Assembly (NCBI GenBank): GCA_038093975.1
Contig: JBBPTG010000115.1
Location: 16,543-80,542, forward strand
Length of the DNA: 64,000 bases
Source: Chalciporus piperatus
Taxonomy: Eukaryota > Basidiomycota > Agaricomycetes > Boletales > Boletaceae
Direction: 5' to 3'
Under the pieces are notes generated by a model. The model saw only the letters and a list, made by a program, of their open reading frames with translations, had not been told where the DNA came from and made no database searches. Position numbers and translations under genes: made by a program. This document shows positions 3,398 through 64,000 of this stretch, in pieces (position 1 is the first letter of the stretch; the number at the start of each line of letters is the position of its first letter).

Positions 3398-5466
3398 TTA
3401 ATTATTGGGTGGGGATTCGGAGGAAAGGTTCGTATACGCTGGTCTATTCGGTGGTGTGTTCAATCGCTTGCTCACCTCCCCAGTCGACCTTGATGCCTCG
3501 ATGTCGACAGGCTTGCTATATCCTCCTTGAACATTTGGATGAGGACCCATTGCAACCAATTTGTTCCCTTGGCCAACGTGTTCCAGAGCCCTATGCATAT
3601 CTCCGCCAACACGCTTTGGAGCCCCTAGCACTGGCATGACACTTCTGGCAGCATCGGCAAGGGTCGTAAGGGCTTTCTGGAACTTGGAGGGGTTGAGGCT
3701 CGCTGGGTCAACCCATAGCGTCTCCACCAACATCATCAAGGTCGAGGTCGCGCCACTGTCAACTGGACGGCTCGGTACATTCGGAAGGAACGTAAGTGAC
3801 ACCTGGATGTGGATGTAGCGAGAGACGAGGTCCCAGCATGCCTGAGCGACTTCTTGGTTATCACATCCTCTCAGCACGACGATCATGGGGCACATCAGTC
3901 CACCCGCGATAGAGTAAAACGCGGTTAGGGCAGCTACATCCGCTTCCTCGATGCCGCTATCGAGCAGAGGGGATGTATAGAAGATGAGAAGGCCACCGAC
4001 GACCTGCGGCTTGGTAGATGGGGAAAGGTTTTCAATACGAATAAAATCGTACTCGTGATCACGTATGCGGCTTGTGTGTTTCTGCCACGAAGAAGTGATC
4101 CCAGGCGGACATTCGACGGGGTGATTTGCGGCCATATCATAGACGATGACCGTCCTCACGATCTTTCTATTCGAAAAATGAGTAGGGCGGAAGAGATCGC
4201 GAAACATGGGGAAGATTAGGGACATGTATGAATCCTCGATTTTCCAAGGCGGTCGTTCAGAATACTTGATGATGAGACCCCGCAGAAGCTTTCGGGAAAG
4301 CGAGCGACGTTCTTGGACGACGTGGTCAGTGGTTTCCAGGGTGGTGATGCAGGCGTATGCGTCAAACCGCATACCCTCATCTTGGAAGTCATTTTTGTTT
4401 GCGTCCCACCACGTCTCCATCTCCCCCTCCTGATGTTCAAGGCCAGTAACAACCAGAGCGACTGGCGCCTTCTTCCGGCAAACTTTAGAGTAAAAGATAT
4501 CGTAGTTGCGCCGATGGGTTTTCGTGAGTCTACCGGCGCGGACGCAATAAATGATCAGGTTGATTCCACCGGCACTAGCAATCATTTGGATAAGCACTTT
4601 GAGATTGCTCTCTGCTAGGGCCGCAGGAACCGTCCCCGAGGACCCTTCATCGAGTCCTGTGGTGTCCCAGAGGCGGCATTCAAATCCGTCCAGCAAGACA
4701 GTGTATTTCTCGTGTTGGAACGTACATCCGAGAGCGTTGTTGGAGGTTTTGGCCAAAGGTTTATCGGCAATGAGGTTAATGATGGATGACTTGCCGACGC
4801 CAGTTTCGCCGAAAATGATGATGTTGGATTGACATCCGTCGGCAGCGGGATGTGGGTGGCCAGGGACGGAAGTCCAGTCTGGATTTGACGCAGGAGATTG
4901 GGTAGTATTGGAATGCATTTCTGCCGCATCCTGAAAATAGTTCATATAAATCCGTGTGGAAAGGTTACAGATCTTACATGAGTGCTGGCAGCGTCCTACG
5001 AGTAAGATGCTCAGGTCAATGACCACAACAGAAAGATACCACTTACAATCTTTCCTTCATAAACGTCCCGTACGGGGTTCGAAGGTGGGAAGCCAGTGCC
5101 ATCGGATGGTACACGGCAATTGGTCCATCCCGTTTGCACGCCGATGTCCGGTCCTACCTGCGATCCAACGAAGCCCTATAATCAAAATGGTCAAGCCGAA
5201 CTTAGTCACACAGTTATAGTACTTGCCTCCGTTACGGGCCAACGCACAGAGTCGGCGTTCTCGGCGGTAGAGGGCACGTTGCTCGACTCCACAGGATAAC
5301 TTGCATTCAAATTGGTAGTTTGAACACAGTGACCCGTCTGCATAGTGAATGGCGTTTCCTGGTTGGAGGGGGTGGGCGACTCTGTTCTATCGGGAAGTAC
5401 GTGTTGAGTACCTTGTATCCCGTCAGCGTCACTGGATTCAGAGGGGGAATTCGGAAAGGAAGTCAT
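3398..5466 (-). CDS. AIG1/IMAP-like P-loop GTPase, 639 aa
   Basis: A septin/Toc34/AIG1-type GTPase of the kind expanded in mushroom genomes; substrate and partner are unknown. Exons from the 5' end are 5466-5227, 5175-5047, 4995-4978 (only 18 nt) and 4930-3398, all phase 0. Seen in the protein are G1 GETGVGKSS, G3 DTTGLDEG, and at the G4 position VVTGLEHQ instead of the usual TKxD/NKxD, which is typical of this divergent group. About 120 residues before the P-loop are low-complexity, rich in Ser and Thr. The last 250 residues repeat a P-loop-free domain with WDLVSRY. The first intron can only be read in frame as a GC-AG intron. It stands head to head with a paralogue at 6493-7586. The ATG at 5464-5466 is the first in the open frame. 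Confidence 0.82.
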
Positions 5467-6492: not shown

Positions 6493-7586
6493 ATGATGCA
6501 TCACGGTCAATCGAACTTCAGGAACGACTTTCTTTTCGAAGAGACGCCCGCGTCTTCGTGGTACCCACCGGACGAGGATAGCGAAGATCAGAGGCCGCCA
6601 TACTATGCGGATGTGAATAATAGTGCGTCGAATTATCTGGCCCCCTCATCGATCATCCTGAATACCTAACATCCTTGCAGACACAGGAAGCGACACCCGC
6701 CAAGAAAAGAGCCCGTCCACTCAACCTTCTTTTGTCTACGAGGGAACGCGACCTGGTAAGTGCATCAACGGGTCTCTATTCACCTCCGAATGAACATACT
6801 TCAGTGCCTTCGAATGTGAAGCAGAAGAACATCGTTCTTTTTGGGGAGACTGGAGTTGGAAAAAGCTCCGTGATCAACTTGATTGCTGGCCGAGAGGTCG
6901 CTGTCACCTCGCCGAACTCCAAAGGTTGCACGTTTCAATCGACGGAGTACTCGTTCACTGCCGGCGAGCTCCAACTACGAATCTATGACACCGTCGGACT
7001 CGAAGAACCAGACATCGGTGTCAATACCTTCTTCGGAGCTATCGAGAAAGCTCACCAGCTCGTCACGTCCCTCAATGCCGCTGGTGGCATTGATCTCCTT
7101 CTCTTCTGCATACGAGCTGGAAGAATCACTTGCGCCATGCAGAGAACTTATCGACTGTTTGTCGAGTTTCTCTGCGAGGAGCAGGTACCACTTGCGCTTG
7201 TCGTCACGCATCTAGAAAACAACGACGAGATGGAGGACTGGTGGGCTAATAATGAGCAGGCACTCAAAGCCTATGGGATCGCTCCCGTCGCACACGCGTG
7301 CATTACAGCTGCTCCAGAGCGCCTGACGCAGTACACAGAAAAGCGAGCTCAGTCACGGCGCGCCTTAGAAGACTTGCTGCGCAACACGCTAAGTTCCGCC
7401 AGTTCTCCATATTCCCAGGACGTACGCAGTTGGTTCAAGCGCCTCGCCGCATGGTTGCACACCTTGTTGAAAAGGTCAATGTCTTTAAAGGCTCAGAGGA
7501 AACAGCTGGTGAAGTCCCTCACAACCCGGTGTGGATTACGGGACGAGGAGGCCAAGAAGTTTGCGGAAATGCTTGCGAAGGGCTGA
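6493..7586 (+). CDS. AIG1/IMAP-like P-loop GTPase, 328 aa
   Basis: A shorter paralogue of the GTPase at 3398-5466. Exons are 6493-6622, 6681-6755 and 6805-7586, giving 987 nt. The start is the first of two adjacent ATGs; the spliced N-terminus is acidic, with a Pro/Tyr-rich patch (PPYYADVNN). Motifs are G1 GETGVGKSS, G3 DTVGLEEP, and VVTHLENN at the G4 position. The matching positions in the neighbour are GETGVGKSS, DTTGLDEG and VVTGLEHQ, so the two share the same unusual G4 replacement. It ends soon after the G domain with a basic amphipathic stretch (WFKRLAAWLHTLLKR) that could lie on a membrane, and lacks the long C-terminal half of its neighbour. Cellular role is unknown. Confidence 0.82.
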
Positions 7587-7958: not shown

Positions 7959-10900
7959 TCACCCTCCAAGTGCTCGCACACCACCGATCCTAGCCCAAAA
8001 CATCTCTTCCTTCAACTTCACCACCTCCTTCCACGTTCTCTCCTCCCATGTCGCATCACCTGCGAACCCTTCTCCTTCTGTACTTGACGATCGTTTCGTG
8101 CTCGTCGTATCGATGGACGTGCGCACCGTCGCCGTCGAGGTCTTGTCATTGTCCGTAGATGGGACGGGGGCGTCGGTGTCAGCGGAAGGTGGAGCATCCG
8201 ACGCAGCGACGGTGGGAGGTAATTGAGACTCGACGGATGGTTGAGCATTGTCTGCGACTGCTTCTCCCTTCGTTCCGTTCGCGATGCTCTCCGGCGCTGC
8301 TGCTGTTACATCTGTCACGGGTGCAGCCGTAAGTTCAACGTTGGCTTCGTCGTTTGCAGGGTTGTCTTCACGTTTAATAGCCTCTTTCTCCTTCACACTC
8401 TCCACTTCCTCTTTCCGCGCCTCCGTTTCAGGAGCTGGTGCTGTAGCTGGCACAGTGCCCTTCACCTCATCCCTCGCCACCTCGCCACCGACTTTTCCGT
8501 CACTCGATGTCGTCGGGGGCGGTGGCACAGCCCTCCTCGCAGGCGCCCTCCTCGGAAGAGGCGGTGCACCCGGTCCCGCAGCCGGAGACGCCGGTCGTGA
8601 CGGCCCCAACGGCGACGACGTCGATAACTTCCCTCGAATATGCGATGGCGTAGGTAAATGTCCAGGTGGCGGAGTCGTCGTACGTGTAATTCCGGCCGGT
8701 GCTGGTGATCCTGGTCGAGAACGGTTGATAGCGGGGCTAGCGGCGCGTGGTATGGGCGGTGGGGATGCGGGGGAGGAAACGCGAGACCGGGGACGTGGGA
8801 TGGGAGAGGTGACACGTGGAGGAATGGGAGAGGTAGGTGTTTCGGGGAGGGGAATGTTGTGTGCGGCTGGCGATGTGGATTGGTCCTGGATCGGTGCGGC
8901 ACTCACGGTGGCATCAGCAGGAACGGGATGAGTAGTCGTGAAAGGAGCAGGCGAAGTGGCGGTTGGTGTAGGCGCTGCGAAAGTGATTTCGTCGACCGGG
9001 GTCGCGAAGGAGTCATTGGACGCATTCGGATCTACTTTCTCTGTCTCAAGGTGGCCGTTCGTGGTGATAGCTGATTCTGCAGGCTCTGGAGCGGGAGCAG
9101 CGGTACCATTCTGATGGGTCTCTGGCGGGGGAATAGCTGTATCAGTCGTTGCCCTACCACGGACTACGCTGCGCTTTGGAAGCGGTGGTGGGACATGTTC
9201 CTGTTCTCGTGGAGTGGGGACCTCAGTATGAGGATGTGGGACGGTGGGATGGGTCGGTGGCGGCAGCAAAGTCTTCGTGCTCTCCTTCTCTTTCGCTCCC
9301 CCCTTCTCTTTGACACTGTCTCCGCCTTCCTTGCCCCAACTAACTGCCCTCTCTCCCAACGCACTAGCCATCTCCCAAAGCCTCCTTCTACGCGGAGGCA
9401 CCGGAGGTTTCTCGGAAGCAGTCGGAGGTGCTGTCGCGCTCGCTGGTTGACTTCCAGCGCTCGCAGGGGTCACTGGCGAGTCAAGTGTTTCTTGACTGTT
9501 GCCGTCAACTCCCGACTTGGGTGGTTGGATGACTTCTTCCTCCCATATTCGTTCGACGACCCCCACACGTACGAACGCCCACAACGAACACGTACTTCGC
9601 AGCCTCGTCAGGCAGTAATTCGACGTGCAGAGAGGATACGGGGAGTTTTGTGTCTGTGGTGGAAGGACGCGAGTCGCTGACACGGGATGCACCGGGGGAC
9701 GAGTGGATGTGCCAACAGCGGGCATAGACGCAGAAGGCGCATGAACGGGGTTAAGATATGGTGGGGGGATGGCAGTGGTAGCAGCGGCGAGACGGAAGAT
9801 ATATACCTGCCCTGGGGGTTCGAAGTCTGCCGTTTGTGGTGTCGTGGCAGTGGAATTCTGAGATGAGGAAGACAGGGCCAAGGGATATTTGAACCATGAA
9901 CTCCCGTTGACGCTGTTTGGACGTGTAGGTAATGTTCCTGGAGGTAAGCGTGCGATCTCTGTACCACATAGAGCGCAGGAGACAGATGTGGATGATACGG
10001 ATGAGGAATGAGAGTGGAATTCTTGAAGAAGGTTCGTGAAGGAAATGGGCTCCACGGTTAACATGCCGGTGTGGATTGCAGCAAGAACTGAGCGACGAGA
10101 CAACCAGTTCAGCGAAGGTGCGAGGTCAAGACGGAGAGTAGGTTCACTAAACATGTATAATGAGATCAGCAGGAGAACAATACATTGCATGAACTTACGA
10201 GTCCTCAGTGAGTAGACGTGCAAGGAATGGTTGACCTAAAAGCATCGACATGGCAGGAGGTGTTGGCTGTTGGACCCTCAGTCCCCGAAGATGCGTGACG
10301 AACGCGATGAATTCGGAGTATGGAGTGTGCGTAGTCATGAAACGAATCTTAGACACTTCCCCGACGCGTAGCTCGTCACGCTCTACCCATTTCCCTTTGC
10401 CCATTGTCATCTTTGCCTCTCGTGCCTGCCTCTCAGCATCTTCCTTCTCGGTTTGGAGAGTCTGCATCTGGACCTGCATTTGCTTGACGGCATCTTCTGC
10501 CATTTTGAGAGCCTCCTCCGCGCCATGCACTTTTCGTTCACTTCTGGCTTGACCGAGGCGAGCTTCGGCGACCATCGTGTTCGCTTGATCGAAAAGCGTT
10601 GCACTCAGATCATCGAGGTCTTTCTCGATATCATGACGTGCACTCTCTGCCTGACCTCGCTGAGCAGCCTCCTCGGTCGCGCGTTCCATAAGTCTATTCA
10701 GCTCGGTCGTGACATGCGCTTTCTCCACCAACAAACCCGTGTTCAGAGCTGCCAAATGATGGCTTCGTTCAAGCTCGAGCGAAGAAACCGTGACATTGGC
10801 ATTTCGGAGTGAAGCAGACGTATCATGTAGTTCGTCCTCGAGGTTTGATACACGATCGTATGAGGTGACAAGTTTGCTATTGAGTTGCGTGACTTGAGAG

Positions 10901-16115: not shown

Positions 16116-17682
16116 CTCGTGTCTTGTCGTCCCTGGCGCCTTTCTTTGGTCGAATGTGGTCCAAAACCCTGATCTCCCTTTCTGCCCTTTTCTTATGCTT
16201 AAATCCTTGACAGCGGACTGGTCAAATGAGATCCTGTGTCTGTGCTAGGTGGTTGTTAGCGCGGTCGGGGCAGAAAGGCAGCGCAGTCGTCAAAAGGCTG
16301 TCAGAAATGCGGTGGTATCGCATCAAATGATTTGTATCCGTCAACCCCCACAATCAATTCGAGAAGCTGTGCGCCGTCGCCCGTACCAGTGCTCCGTAGT
16401 CGGATGCATCGTAACGCCCTCAGTCTCCTTCATGATGAACGCTGTCTTTTCCTAAATGCATATCCATGGAAGATATATACCAAGTAGATACTCGATCGGT
16501 CAATCTGCACTGATTTTTTTGACTGGAACAGTCAATCTGGTCTCCGGCCATCTCCGGAAGCCCTCCGTCCTGACACTGACACTTGACAGCGATGATATCA
16601 CCATCACCCGCAATCATTAAATAGGGATTTTTGTACTCGTGCGTTGACTCCACCTGGCACCAAGAATACCAGAATAAACCATACTCAAGCTGCGGCCAGA
16701 GTGAGATAGAGAAGCTGACGAGCCACATTCTGAATCTCCACCAACCTGATCTCGGTCCGGTAAGATATTGAACAGCGCCGTCTGTTGATCCTCGTGATAG
16801 GCTTGAATGAGTGTTGTTTTCTCACAGCCTCCCACTTGTCATGATTGACGCCTTGCAGTACAATTGTCGAGGATACAAATGAGATGTGTACCCTTTCCTA
16901 GTGACCATTGACCTCTAATGCATCCCTCACTCCTGCCGGAACATACTCGTCATCAACTGACTGCGTAAACGAACATCCCACCGTGCCCACCATCATGATT
17001 ACGTTGACAAGACAATTGTAACAAGTAGTAGCTCTGGAAGAAAGCTTAGCTGTAGGTTGTAGCACCCCTGCACCGATTCCACTGACTCCTACTATAGATA
17101 CGTGACCAAAGATCCAGATCCTCTTGTGCTGGAAGGCAACAGTCTCTTTACACCGAACCTAGCATCCAAAGAGAGAAAAAAGATAGAATGATTATATCAC
17201 GCAACTTGAATACCCCTGGGTATCCAGCGCGTTCCTCCCCTCGTCCTTCCTCTCCTTCTCGTTTCCCCAACTTGAAAACGGGAAGGAATTCGGCGGCGAC
17301 ACCGATTAAATACTTCGTCTAGTCCATGTACTGAACTGTACAAATGTTTGTAGGATACATAGGGTTAATAGCTAGTTGGTGCTTTGGCCAAAGATCTCCA
17401 CGCGAGTGTCAAGTTGTGCGTCCGTTTCACGAAAAGCCTGAGCGGCCCCACACAATTACTGGCAGCCATCGACAGATCATCGACGCAGGGTATCATCGAG
17501 TTGTATTCAAAAAGAAACCTACACGATCGAAAGTACACACACCAAGCTCAAACACGCTATCTATGTAACAGCAACGACGACGGACGAAATACAAAGCAAC
17601 AAGAGATCAAACCACGACCTACCCATCCGAGTCGGGTACCCAGTACACCCAACGTCGAAGGGTTCCCATAGACTCAGACTCG
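16116..17682. other. 1.6-kb stretch without a supportable gene
   Basis: Lies between the SKT5 start and the stop of the second MAP kinase. On the minus strand two short open pieces could be relics of one coding region: about 17160-16905, with a hydrophobic CYNCLVNVIMMVGTVGC patch, and 16728-16420, with cysteines at KCQCQDGG. I could not join them in frame with good splice sites, and no family comes to mind. The upstream part next to 16115 should hold the SKT5 promoter. Confidence 0.4.
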
Positions 17683-19370
<1,688 letters not shown>

Positions 19371-37979: not shown

Positions 37980-38939
37980 TTAGCCGCAGATAGCTCCACA
38001 AATTTTCACACCGCCCTGTTAGAACAATTAGCGTCCGTTCCCTGAAGTTGGATGAGAAGAACTTACGGCCTTGCAACAGCCATCTTCACTACGTTCGGTG
38101 ATAGCTTCCTCGACGGGAGCACGGCGGCAGATGCCACCACAGACTTTCACACCGCCCTGTTAGAATAATTAGCGTCCGTCCCCTGAAGTTGGATAACAAG
38201 AACTTACGGCCTTGCAGCAGCCATCTTCACTACGTTCGGTGATATCCTCCTCGGCGGGGACGGCGCGGCGGCAGATACCACCACAGACTTTCACACCACC
38301 CTGGTAGAACAATCAGTGTCTGTCCCTTGAAGTTGGAGGCACAGTATAACAAGAACTTACGGCCTTGCAGCAGCCATCTTCACTACGTTCGGTAATAGCC
38401 TCCTCGACGGGAACGCTGAGCGCGCGGCGGCAGATGCCTCCACAGACTTTCACACCACCCTGTTAAAACAATTAGCGTCCGTCCCCTGAAGTTGGATAAC
38501 ATGAACTTACAGCCTTGCAGCAGCCATCTTCACTACGTTCGGTAATATCCTCCTCGACGGGAACGCTGAGCGCGCGGCGGCAGATTCCACCACAGACTTT
38601 CACACCGCCCTGCCAGTGGTAGAATAATTAGCATCTGTCCCTTGGCGTTGGAGGGACAGTATAACAAGAACTTACGGCCTTGCAGCAGCCATCTTCACTA
38701 CGTTCAGTGATAGCCTCCTCGACGGGAACGGCACGGCGGCAGATGCCACCACAGACTTTCACGCCGCCCTGGTAGAACAATTAGCATCTGTCCCCTGAAA
38801 TTGGAGGTGCTGTATAACAAGAACTTACGGCCTTGCAGCAGCCGTCTTCGCTGCGCTCGGTGATAGCGACATCGGAGGCAGGGATAGCAATAGCGGATGC
38901 AACGAGAGTGAAAAGGACAGCGATGAAGGAGAAACGCAT
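37980..38939 (-). CDS. Secreted multi-copy cysteine-rich peptide precursor, 206 aa
   Basis: Unrecognised family. Seven exons, all phase 0: 38939-38829, 38768-38676, 38609-38511, 38459-38361, 38300-38208, 38156-38067 and 38015-37980, with introns of 51-66 nt. Exon 1 codes a signal peptide (MRFSFIAVLFTLVASAIA) and the first ITERSEDGCCKA. Each of the five internal exons codes GGVKVCGGICRR followed by an acidic linker (such as AVPVEEA) and again ITERSEDGCCKA. The last exon closes with GGVKICGAICG and stop. The protein thus holds six copies of a peptide with cysteines spaced CC-x6-C-x3-C, separated by five RR pairs, the site of the Golgi protease Kex2. Each predicted mature peptide of about 30 residues spans an exon junction, and its four cysteines would make two disulfides. 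Possible roles are an antimicrobial, signalling or modified (RiPP-like) peptide; none is proven. No modifying enzyme is seen nearby. Confidence 0.85.
38016..38828 (-). repeat. Tandem exon-plus-intron repeat units in the peptide gene
   Basis: Five internal exons of 90-99 nt and six introns alternate. Exons are nearly identical over CGTAGTGAAGATGGCTGCTG and the GTGAAAGTCTGTGG block. Introns are also alike: all start GTAAGTTC and most share a GACAGATGCTAATTGTTCTA-like branch region. Three introns have length 51, two 60 and one 66. Unit length is about 140-165 bp, so the repeat grew by copying whole exon-intron units. Confidence 0.88.
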
Positions 38940-39021: not shown

Positions 39022-39029
39022 TATTTATA
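39022..39029 (-). promoter_or_regulatory. TATA box of the repeat-peptide gene
   Basis: TATAAATA on the minus strand, about 83 bp upstream of the ATG at 38939. Confidence 0.55.
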
Positions 39030-39167
39030 CACCTCGTAATGTGGTCTGTGCGCAACGCTCGCTGATCGTGATGCACGATAGTTTCGCTATGAGTCAGTTG
39101 TTACAGTATTCGACAACATACCTCAAGCAGATGTTGGCTTCCATGCCATTTTGGTGGAACCGAAGGA

Positions 39168-39382
39168 GGTGAAGCGAAAGCCACTAGTTCTGCTTCTGGC
39201 GCTAGCCTACATTCGTCTTGATCTCTTTGTCCAGGTTGGACAGTTCAAGTTGGACTTTTCGAGGATGGACGCGAAGGTGAGGTGAGAACCACTAGTTGTG
39301 CTTCTGGAACTAACCTAAATTCGTCTTGTTCAGGTTGGTCAGTTCAAGTTGGACCTCTCGAGGTTGGACGCCAAGATAGAAC
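39168..39382 (+). repeat. Two tandem copies of a ~105-bp unit upstream of the peptide gene
   Basis: The block around 39168-39278 (CCACTAGTTCTGCTTCTGG, then CAGTTCAAGTTGGACTTTTC) is repeated with changes at about 39279-39382 (CCACTAGTTGTGCTTCTGG, then CAGTTCAAGTTGGACCTCTC). No coding frame is kept across both. They lie 230-440 bp upstream of the peptide start codon and may be part of its control region, or of an older duplicate of something else. Confidence 0.65.
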
Positions 39383-62587: not shown

Positions 62588-62979
62588 AAGGTTGTCGTTC
62601 GACAGTCTGCGATTCCAGTTTATGCTTCATCATTCTGATCGGTTTCTGCTATATGTACTCTGTGAAACTGCAGGCTATGTACTGATGTGTTCGGTTTCGC
62701 TATGTCAATGTTAACTGTTCCTTCCTGGATATGTTGTACATTAAAAACCGAGAAAACGTGTGCCACCCCCGATATGAAAGTGATGCGCTCAACGGCAGGA
62801 TACCAGGAAGACAGCAAAAGTTAGAAGCAAGTAGTCCAAGTCAGGACTCAGCGTAGACTACTATTACTAAAAAAAGACCCTTTGGCAACCAAGATCAGAA
62901 ACAGGGACCACTGTCGAATGTCGTGCCAATCTCTTCGTCTCCCGTCGATACCCGATAATCTCAACCTGAACTTGACGAA
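62588..62979. other. Intergenic: CWC21 3' UTR and F-box gene promoter
   Basis: This 392-bp gap has no supportable gene. Confidence 0.4.
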
Positions 62980-63971
62980 ATGGAGGATTTGGCTTGTGCG
63001 AAACATCCCACACCCCAGCCTACTCTCCCAGATGAACTTGTCTATCACATCTTGCGTTATTGCCGCGGCATGAGCCCCCGCGAGCTCATCCGATTGCGTC
63101 TTGTGAGTCTATAAGTTTCAACCCGTACATCACGTCGCCGATTTTCACTCTGGCCTGGACTCTTCCACACGATTTGCCAAAAAAAACACCTGGGTCTTGC
63201 CGCCCTTCTTGATTACATCCCCCTACTCCAAATGATTACCCTTAGCTCCTCTCTGATGTTCCTCGTTCTAGGTCTCAAAGCAATTTCGCGATGTTGCTCG
63301 CGATACCCAGCTGTGGAAGGCGTGGTACGCCACCGCTCCGTTGCCCCGTCCACCTGGGCCGTTCTCGTGGCAGTCCACTCGGTCTCTTGAACGCATTTTG
63401 GTTCATTCAGAGCGCTTATCCCGTACATGGGCCTCACAGCCCCTCAAAGTTGTTTCAATCACTCAAGGTCCACGTTACAAGCCAACATACACACCCAAAA
63501 TTCTCTTCGGAAGGTTGTTCATTTGGTCGGGAGAGAACCAAGTTTTTGCCGAAGATCTGGAAGTTGGTTCCCGTCAAATGATTTGGGAGACCGACCAACG
63601 AATACGTTCATTCTCAATCTTCTCAATGGGTTTCCCCGATGCACTCCGAGTTTATCTTTCTGTATCCTGCAGCGATGAATTAGAGCCTGAGGGGCGACGA
63701 CAAATGTACGTGCATCCATTGTTCTGTTCTGCTGCTAGTTTTCACCAATCTCTTCTCTAGCAAACTTGTAGTGTTTTCCTTGCAGGACGAAACCAGCTCA
63801 TTCGGACCCGTAATCCACGAGATGGACCTCCCGACAGATGTCACTGGTGTCGCCACCTGCCAGTCACTTCTATATTTTTCGTGTATTCCCGAATACTGGC
63901 TTCGCGGCGTGGTTGTCGACCCGTGGACGTATACCGCATACCAGTTTCCACCATTTAATAGCAATCTAATG
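62980..63971 (+). CDS. F-box protein, 5' part (3' end outside window)
   Basis: Probable SCF substrate receptor. Exons: 62980-63102, 63272-63705 and 63761-63971, followed by a GTGAGT donor at 63972, so more exons lie beyond the edge. Residues 15-70 form an F-box: PTLPDELVYHILRYC, SPRELIRLRLVSKQFRDVARDTQLWKAWY. The rest (VSITQGPRYKPTY, GRLFIWSGENQVFAEDLEVG, VVFSLQDE) reads as beta strands, possibly a propeller-like domain, as in many mushroom F-box proteins without LRRs. The target is unknown. Confidence 0.82.
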
Positions 63972-64000
63972 GTGAGTAGCAAATACTGATGAATCTCAAT

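What the first reader, a model, noticed from the sequence alone, without database searches (positions are those of the whole stretch)
37980..38939. Secreted precursor with six four-cysteine peptides and dibasic sites, one unit per exon
Seen: signal peptide, six copies of a core with cysteines CC-x6-C-x3-C, five RR pairs between copies and none after the last, and acidic linkers of varied length. Known: Kex2 cuts after RR in secreted fungal precursors, and several fungal peptides (pheromones, dikaritin-type RiPPs, Kex2-processed repeat proteins) are made this way. Inferred: six mature peptides of about 30 residues, each with two disulfides. I know no family with this core, and no modifying enzyme gene (for instance a UstYa-like one) was seen in the window.
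Basis: partly seen in the sequence, partly recalled or inferred. Interest (0 to 1): 0.93.

Follow-up and report, generated by a model that had tools for sequence, protein, structure and literature searches.

The report
Mushroom precursor releasing six four-cysteine peptides
A mushroom-type fungus carries a gene whose secreted product looks built to be cut into six nearly identical small peptides, each probably held by two disulfide bridges; relatives in two other mushroom species appear to make a single copy, so this may be a natural case of amplifying one peptide by copying its exon.

Summary
The gene lies on the minus strand (38939 to 37980): seven phase-0 exons, six 51-66 nt introns, a 206-residue precursor with a signal-like leader and six cores. 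Corrections: the spacing is CC-x7-C-x3-C, not x6, and each internal exon holds the back half of one core and the front half of the next. The same genome has three more copies: one with five units and an inverted pair with two units each. Three proteins from two Boletales species share the core as single units ending at the last cysteine; one of the three is labelled partial. In 15 of 15 cores and 3 of 3 relatives, the core follows [I/V]-x-E-R, which fits the extended Kex2 motif. I therefore predict 18-19-residue peptides (SEDGCCKAGGVKVCGGIC), cut at ER in front and RR behind, rather than ~30-mers. The core is conserved (pN/pS about 0.1), the linker less so (about 0.5). It fits the Kex2-processed repeat protein plan, not the dikaritin plan. 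Function is undetermined; a biotic-interaction peptide is the best guess. There is no transcript or peptide evidence.

The parts
38829..38939 (-). exon 1: start codon, leader, IPASDVA, ITER, first half of core 1 (SEDGCCKA)
   Evidence: leader judged by eye (hydrophobic stretch, AIA), no signal-peptide program run
38676..38768 (-). exon 2: GGVKVCGGIC, RR, linker AVPVEEA, ITER, SEDGCCKA
38511..38609 (-). exon 3: GGVKVCGGIC, RR, linker ALSVPVEED, ITER, SEDGCCKA
38361..38459 (-). exon 4: GGVKVCGGIC, RR, linker ALSVPVEEA, ITER, SEDGCCKA
38208..38300 (-). exon 5: GGVKVCGGIC, RR, linker AVPAEED, ITER, SEDGCCKA
38067..38156 (-). exon 6: GGVKVCGGIC, RR, linker APVEEA, ITER, SEDGCCKA
37980..38015 (-). 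exon 7: GGVKICGAICG and stop; last core differs (V to I, G to A, one extra G) and has no RR
   Evidence: the same last core is in the C15 copy
38769..38828 (-). intron 1, 60 nt, phase 0 (first of six; the others are 66, 51, 60, 51, 51 nt at 38610-38675, 38460-38510, 38301-38360, 38157-38207, 38016-38066)
   Evidence: each has an in-frame stop if retained
38886..38939 (-). presumed signal peptide, 18 residues
   Evidence: sequence shown directly; inference
39022..39029 (-). TATAAATA box, 90 nt upstream of the ATG
   Evidence: a TATAAATA lies 84-92 nt upstream in all four copies

Best explanation
The gene encodes a secreted repeat precursor of the Kex2-processed (KEP) type. In the secretory pathway each unit is cut twice: after [I/V]-x-E-R, just before the core, and after RR, just behind it (the last unit ends with the protein). 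Trimming of the RR by a Kex1-type carboxypeptidase would leave five copies of SEDGCCKAGGVKVCGGIC plus one variant, SEDGCCKAGGVKICGAICG. Each is probably closed by two disulfides. The acidic linkers are spacers. Copy number arose by duplication of a symmetric phase-0 exon with its intron, from a single-unit ancestor like the Boletales relatives. Shown: gene anatomy read from DNA, paralogs, homologs, conservation of core and of flanking ER and RR. Inferred: splicing in the cell, secretion, both cuts, disulfides, direction of evolution. Guess on function: a high-dose signalling or defence peptide acting on other organisms or other hyphae.
For: Seven in-frame exons, 206 residues. Three further gene copies keep leader, exon phase, ER, RR and four cysteines per core with 5, 2 and 2 units. 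15 of 15 cores, counted as CC pairs without asking for ER, follow [IV]TER; 3 of 3 homologs have IVER, ITER or VFER. In C115 and C15 every arginine other than Arg2 of the leader lies in an ER or RR site; the C23 copies have one more, Arg83, inside the last loop of their second core. Kex2 can accept Glu at P2 and takes aliphatic P4 (PMC8528282, passages). Products of cuts after single Arg were reported for mushroom KEPs expressed in Pichia (PMC9769878, Results part 1). Core pN/pS 0.098 (13 cores) against 0.50 for the last five linker codons (10 linkers); window cores 1-5 differ by 3.3 synonymous and 0 amino-acid changes per pair. The homologs end at the last Cys (P0002 is labelled partial). A Kex2-type P-domain is encoded on C2.
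Against: No transcript, no peptide. Glu at P2 is a weaker Kex2 context than Lys or Arg, so the ER cut may be partial or made by another protease. RR-only products would be of nearly constant length (29 in 9 of 11 units of C115 and C15). P0001 has a second motif-like site, LPTR, further upstream, so the motif alone is not specific. In the four genes here the last core carries one extra residue (G or P) before the stop, unlike the homologs. That the homologs have one unit rests on gene models; I saw no DNA of them. The linker comparison rests on five codons, and the copies are not independent. Synonymous differences in the cores (pS 0.305 for the 11 C115 and C15 cores) exceed intron differences (0.129 for the 11 introns of those genes), which I cannot fully explain. 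AlphaFold2 gave no usable structure (mean pLDDT 59.5 and 59.4). P0002 has an extra residue between the cysteines and P0003 has x4 in the last loop, so spacing is not strict.
Confidence: 0.6

Rival explanations
1. Kex2 cuts only after RR; the mature products are 29-31-residue peptides with an acidic tail plus the four-cysteine core.
For: RR is the standard site and is present five times. Product lengths would be nearly constant: 29 in 9 of 11 units of C115 and C15, 31 in the other 2, 29 and 36 in C23. Linkers keep an acidic character; PVEE is in 6 of the 9 linkers of C115 and C15.
Against: The first product would begin with IPASDVA instead of a linker; linker length (6, 7 or 9, and 13 in C23) and sequence vary while the core hardly does; ER is kept in 18 of 18 units, including three single-unit homologs that have no RR.
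Confidence: 0.24
2. The secreted protein is not cut up; it is a cysteine-rich repeat protein acting as a whole, for example on the cell wall or as a metal binder.
For: No proof of cleavage here; 24 cysteines in repeats could suit a metal-binding or matrix protein.
Against: The homologs found have one unit in their gene models; nearly all arginines sit at unit borders; no Pfam family over its cut-off for two precursors and no PDB sequence match for a 29-residue unit. No C-x-C motif in the cores, which I recall as typical of metallothioneins.
Confidence: 0.1
3. A dikaritin-like RiPP in which the core is cyclised by UstYa-type enzymes.
For: Leader plus repeated cores plus Kex2 sites is also the dikaritin plan; the genome has 5 UstYa matches.
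Against: The 5 matches are on C42, C71 and C78, none on C115, C15 or C23. Of 40 open frames scanned in the window and around the paralogs 17 had a Pfam match at E up to 0.001, none of them UstYa. Four conserved cysteines point to disulfides instead.
Confidence: 0.03
4. A decayed or misassembled array without function.
For: Near-identical tandem units are prone to assembly error; no expression data.
Against: No frame break in 15 units of four genes, splice sites intact, TATA box kept, few amino-acid changes in the core. Unit number may still be wrong.
Confidence: 0.03

Closest known systems
HYDPIDRAFT_108487 and HYDPIDRAFT_119319 (Hydnomerulius pinastri, in NCBI taxonomy Leucogyrophana pinastri), BDN67DRAFT_1010916 (Paxillus ammoniavirescens): hypothetical proteins of two Boletales
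   Same: MRFS leader, [IV]xER just before the core, DE(D/Q)GCC(K/S)A..GVK(V/I)CG..C in place of SEDGCC.. here. P0001 shares EDGCCKAGGVKVCGGIC letter for letter.
   Different: One unit, no RR, 49-55 residues, end right after the last Cys (P0002 is labelled partial); P0003 has x4 in the last loop and P0002 one extra residue between the cysteines.
Kex2-processed repeat proteins (KEPs) of fungi (Le Marquer 2019 PMC6339444; Umemura 2020 PMC7329392; Vogt 2022 PMC9769878)
   Same: Signal peptide, repeats, dibasic sites between repeats.
   Different: Four cysteines per unit, a second conserved monobasic ER site, and a phase-0 intron inside every core. The passages I saw describe linear, minimally modified peptides (PMC9769878) and two-cysteine pheromone-like ones (PMC6339444); of PMC7329392 I saw only the start of the abstract and a word search without hits. 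Supplementary tables could not be read, so this family might be listed there.
Kex2-processed pro-domain (K2PP) secreted proteins (Outram 2021, PMC8528282, passages seen)
   Same: Removal of an N-terminal pro-part at a site with aliphatic P4, variable P2 (Glu among the listed alternatives) and Arg at P1; the single-unit Boletales relatives fit this plan.
   Different: Here the site recurs before every unit of a repeat precursor.
Alpha-conotoxins (cone snails), recalled, from no call
   Same: Short peptide with a CC-C-C cysteine order.
   Different: No sequence relation tested or claimed; loop sizes 7 and 3; other kingdom. A likeness of pattern only.

Membership tests
Kex2-processed repeat protein (KEP) | signal peptide | tested here: inconclusive
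   hydrophobic leader with AIA before residue 19 read by eye; no signal-peptide program available
Kex2-processed repeat protein (KEP) | at least three near-identical repeats (minimum of the Le Marquer pipeline) | tested here: met
   six in C115, five in C15; the two C23 copies have only two and would not pass
Kex2-processed repeat protein (KEP) | Kex2 sites between repeats | tested here: met
   five RR between six cores in C115, four between five in C15
Kex2-processed repeat protein (KEP) | peptides actually released | not testable with these tools
   needs mass spectrometry
Kex2 pro-domain site (K2PP type) | aliphatic P4, P2 one of K/R/T/P/E/I, P1 Arg | tested here: met
   ITER or VTER in 15 of 15 cores, IVER/ITER/VFER in 3 of 3 homologs; cleavage itself not tested
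Dikaritin RiPP | UstYa-type gene in the cluster | tested here: not met
   5 matches in the genome, none on C115 (80.5 kb contig), C15 or C23; counts are lower bounds
Alpha-type pheromone precursor | STE13 X-A/X-P dipeptides after the Kex2 site | tested here: not met
   10 linkers begin AV, AL, AI, AP or YT; only the 2 AP linkers (one in C115, one in C15) fit
Known Pfam domain or solved structure | match over cut-off | tested here: not met
   (two precursors): six weak Pfam matches for the first and none for the second, best CYSTM E 0.002, all under their curated scores; (one 29-residue unit): no PDB match at E up to 10

The most novel reading that the evidence does not exclude
A family of 18-19-residue, two-disulfide CC-C-C peptides, so far seen only in this genome and in Boletales, each freed by two different cuts (ER in front, RR behind), whose dose is set by duplicating or skipping a symmetric exon that splits every peptide in two; an independent fungal invention of an animal-venom-like mini-scaffold.
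Probability: 0.35. Interest if true: 0.7.

Novelty: new variant of a known kind. Interest (0 to 1): 0.52.

Why it matters
KEP peptides are predicted widely in fungi, yet few have been detected (PMC9769878 abstract), and six kep knockouts in Coprinopsis showed no apparent phenotype (its Discussion). This family gives a series, one unit in the Hydnomerulius and Paxillus gene models and two, five and six in this genome, to test how a single secreted peptide becomes a repeat precursor and what extra dose is for. The predicted peptide is short enough to synthesise and assay directly. It also suggests that KEP searches that look only for dibasic sites can miss the true N-terminus.

Tried and rejected
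Homology search with the six-unit precursor found nothing (7997 candidates scored, none at E up to 10); the two-unit paralog found one homolog among 2 candidates and a small alignment three among 78. Prokaryote genomes and viral contigs gave no relatives, but those scans rest on a few short peptide patterns. More distant or single-unit copies in the same genome: an E-(R/S)-x-E-(D/E/Q/H)-x-C-C pattern gave 16 hits, 15 of them the known cores and one on C5 that I did not examine further, with 1 hit for the reversed control; P0001 and P0003 found only the known genes. Structure prediction was too poor to use, so no fold search was made. Tandem Repeats Finder missed the array, presumably because unit lengths differ. 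Literature: no paper in the open library held the two core strings or the three accessions. Further searches, of which I saw listings only unless a paper is named in the report, showed no description of this family. The species could not be named.

The metallothionein idea was set aside because of the leader and the processing sites; a Rep1-like wall protein was considered and not tested.

Full report
WHAT IS THERE. The finding lies on the minus strand. From the ATG at 38939 to the stop ending at 37980 there are seven exons of 111, 93, 99, 99, 93, 90 and 36 nt and six introns of 60, 66, 51, 60, 51 and 51 nt. All exons are multiples of three and all introns are phase 0. The spliced product has 206 residues: a leader (MRFSFIAVLFTLVASAIA), then six cores of which five are SEDGCCKAGGVKVCGGIC and the last is SEDGCCKAGGVKICGAICG. 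The intron always falls inside the core, after CCKA, so an internal exon is one repeat period but not one peptide. Each intron has an in-frame stop if kept. A pattern of donor, gap, acceptor and core is found 6 times in the window with 0.00 expected in 100 shuffles.

PARALOGS. The genome (35.5 Mb, 484 contigs, not named) has four copies found by DNA search: the window (C115), C15:8565-9341 and an inverted pair on C23 at about 11.5 and 17.9 kb. C15 encodes five units, the C23 copies two each. The last C23 unit is SEDACCYAGGVKVCGARCP. The C23 pair is 91.7% identical over 2.2 kb; C15 matches the window at 87% over 1478 bp, upstream DNA included. A TATAAATA box lies 84-92 nt upstream in all four. 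A looser pattern for the front half of the core gave 16 hits: 15 are these cores and 1 (on C5) was not examined further; the reversed control gave 1.

HOMOLOGS. Three single-unit proteins were found: one among 2 candidates, then three among 78. Two are from Hydnomerulius pinastri and one from Paxillus ammoniavirescens, both Boletales. All three have the MRFS leader, E-R just before the core, and end at the last cysteine; P0002 is labelled partial, so its end is uncertain. P0003 has four residues in the last loop; P0002 has KAVSGVKI between the cysteines. The in-frame reading of the donor GTAAGT is V-S, so P0002 may come from a misplaced splice site at the same intron position; this is a guess, since I had no DNA of that gene. 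No relatives were found in prokaryote or viral collections, with pattern-based scans.

HOW IT PROBABLY WORKS. RR after each core but the last is the standard Kex2 site. A second site is suggested by [I/V]TER directly before 15 of 15 cores (the script asked for ER, so I recounted from CC pairs alone), and by IVER, ITER or VFER before 3 of 3 homologous cores. Outram and colleagues list Glu among the five best alternatives to Lys at P2 and aliphatic residues at P4 (PMC8528282, passages). Vogt and colleagues saw products of cuts after single arginines when mushroom KEPs were expressed in Pichia (PMC9769878, Results part 1). In C115 and C15 all arginines other than Arg2 lie in these two kinds of site; the C23 copies have one more, Arg83. 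With both cuts all peptides of C115 share one N-terminus and are 18 residues long, 19 for the last. Against this, RR alone would give products of 29 residues in 9 of 11 units of C115 and C15 and 31 in 2, and P0001 has another motif-like site, LPTR, further upstream. A P-domain of a Kex2-type protease is encoded on C2; the search gives lower bounds, and PMC9769878 states that C. cinerea and other agaricomycetes have three kex2 genes.

SELECTION. Among 13 cores (one of the two C23 copies, identical in protein, left out), pS is 0.346 and pN 0.034. In the last five linker codons (10 linkers) pS is 0.289 and pN 0.145. Window cores 1-5 differ only at synonymous positions. The mean intron difference over the 11 introns of C115 and C15 is 0.129, less than the pS of 0.305 among the 11 cores of the same genes; splice signals and gene conversion may explain part of this. 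These numbers are small and the copies are related, so they are indicative only.

NEIGHBOURS. In the window I scanned 20 of the 140 open frames of at least 110 codons; near the gene they show an RSN1/CSC1-type channel, a WD40 protein and, below its cut-off, a triose-phosphate transporter match. Around C15 and C23 I scanned 20 of 44 frames of at least 150 codons: mobile-element genes, Use1, DEK_C, chitin synthase, a myosin head, a Sec23/24 zinc finger and a gelsolin repeat. In all, 17 of 40 frames had a Pfam match at E up to 0.001. No UstYa match was among them; the genome's five are on C42, C71 and C78. Unscanned frames could still hold a modifying enzyme.

STRUCTURE. AlphaFold2 on P0001 alone and with its two relatives gave mean pLDDT 59.5 and 59.4. 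Both drew two short strands around the GG turn; this is not evidence.

COMPARISON. The gene fits the KEP plan of signal-like leader, repeats and dibasic sites (PMC6339444, passages). It does not fit the dikaritin plan. The word 'disulfide' occurs 0 times in the main texts of PMC6339444, PMC9769878 and PMC7329392. Their supplementary lists were not readable here, so I cannot say that the family is unlisted. Glomeromycotina SP7 effectors (PMC11333574, passages) have tandem hydrophilic repeats and a conserved intron before the first repeat; I saw no closer likeness.

VERDICT. A real gene family with a conserved core; a new variant of the KEP kind with a plausible two-cut release of small disulfide peptides. 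Expression, cleavage, disulfides and function are unproven.

Noticed in passing
62954-64000: Dispersed repeat: 39 matches in the genome, 22 of them (the window's own included) of 677 bases or more at 78-100% identity, one of them 97% identical and about 0.5 kb downstream of the C15 paralog.
   Followed up: partly
39167-39375: Two stretches of about 100 bases upstream of the gene that cross-match each other's counterparts upstream of the C15 and C23 paralogs; possible shared upstream control region.
   Followed up: no
3401-5056 (-) and 6624-7583 (+): Two GTPase open frames with MMR_HSR1/AIG1-type matches close together.
   Followed up: no
G000 C23:10975-13110 and 16631-18838 (L053-L055): Inverted pair of 2.2 kb segments (91.7% identical), each holding a two-unit paralog with identical protein.
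   Followed up: partly
7962-10235 (-): Long open frame of 758 codons without any Pfam match, in a stretch of higher G+C (0.590).
   Followed up: no
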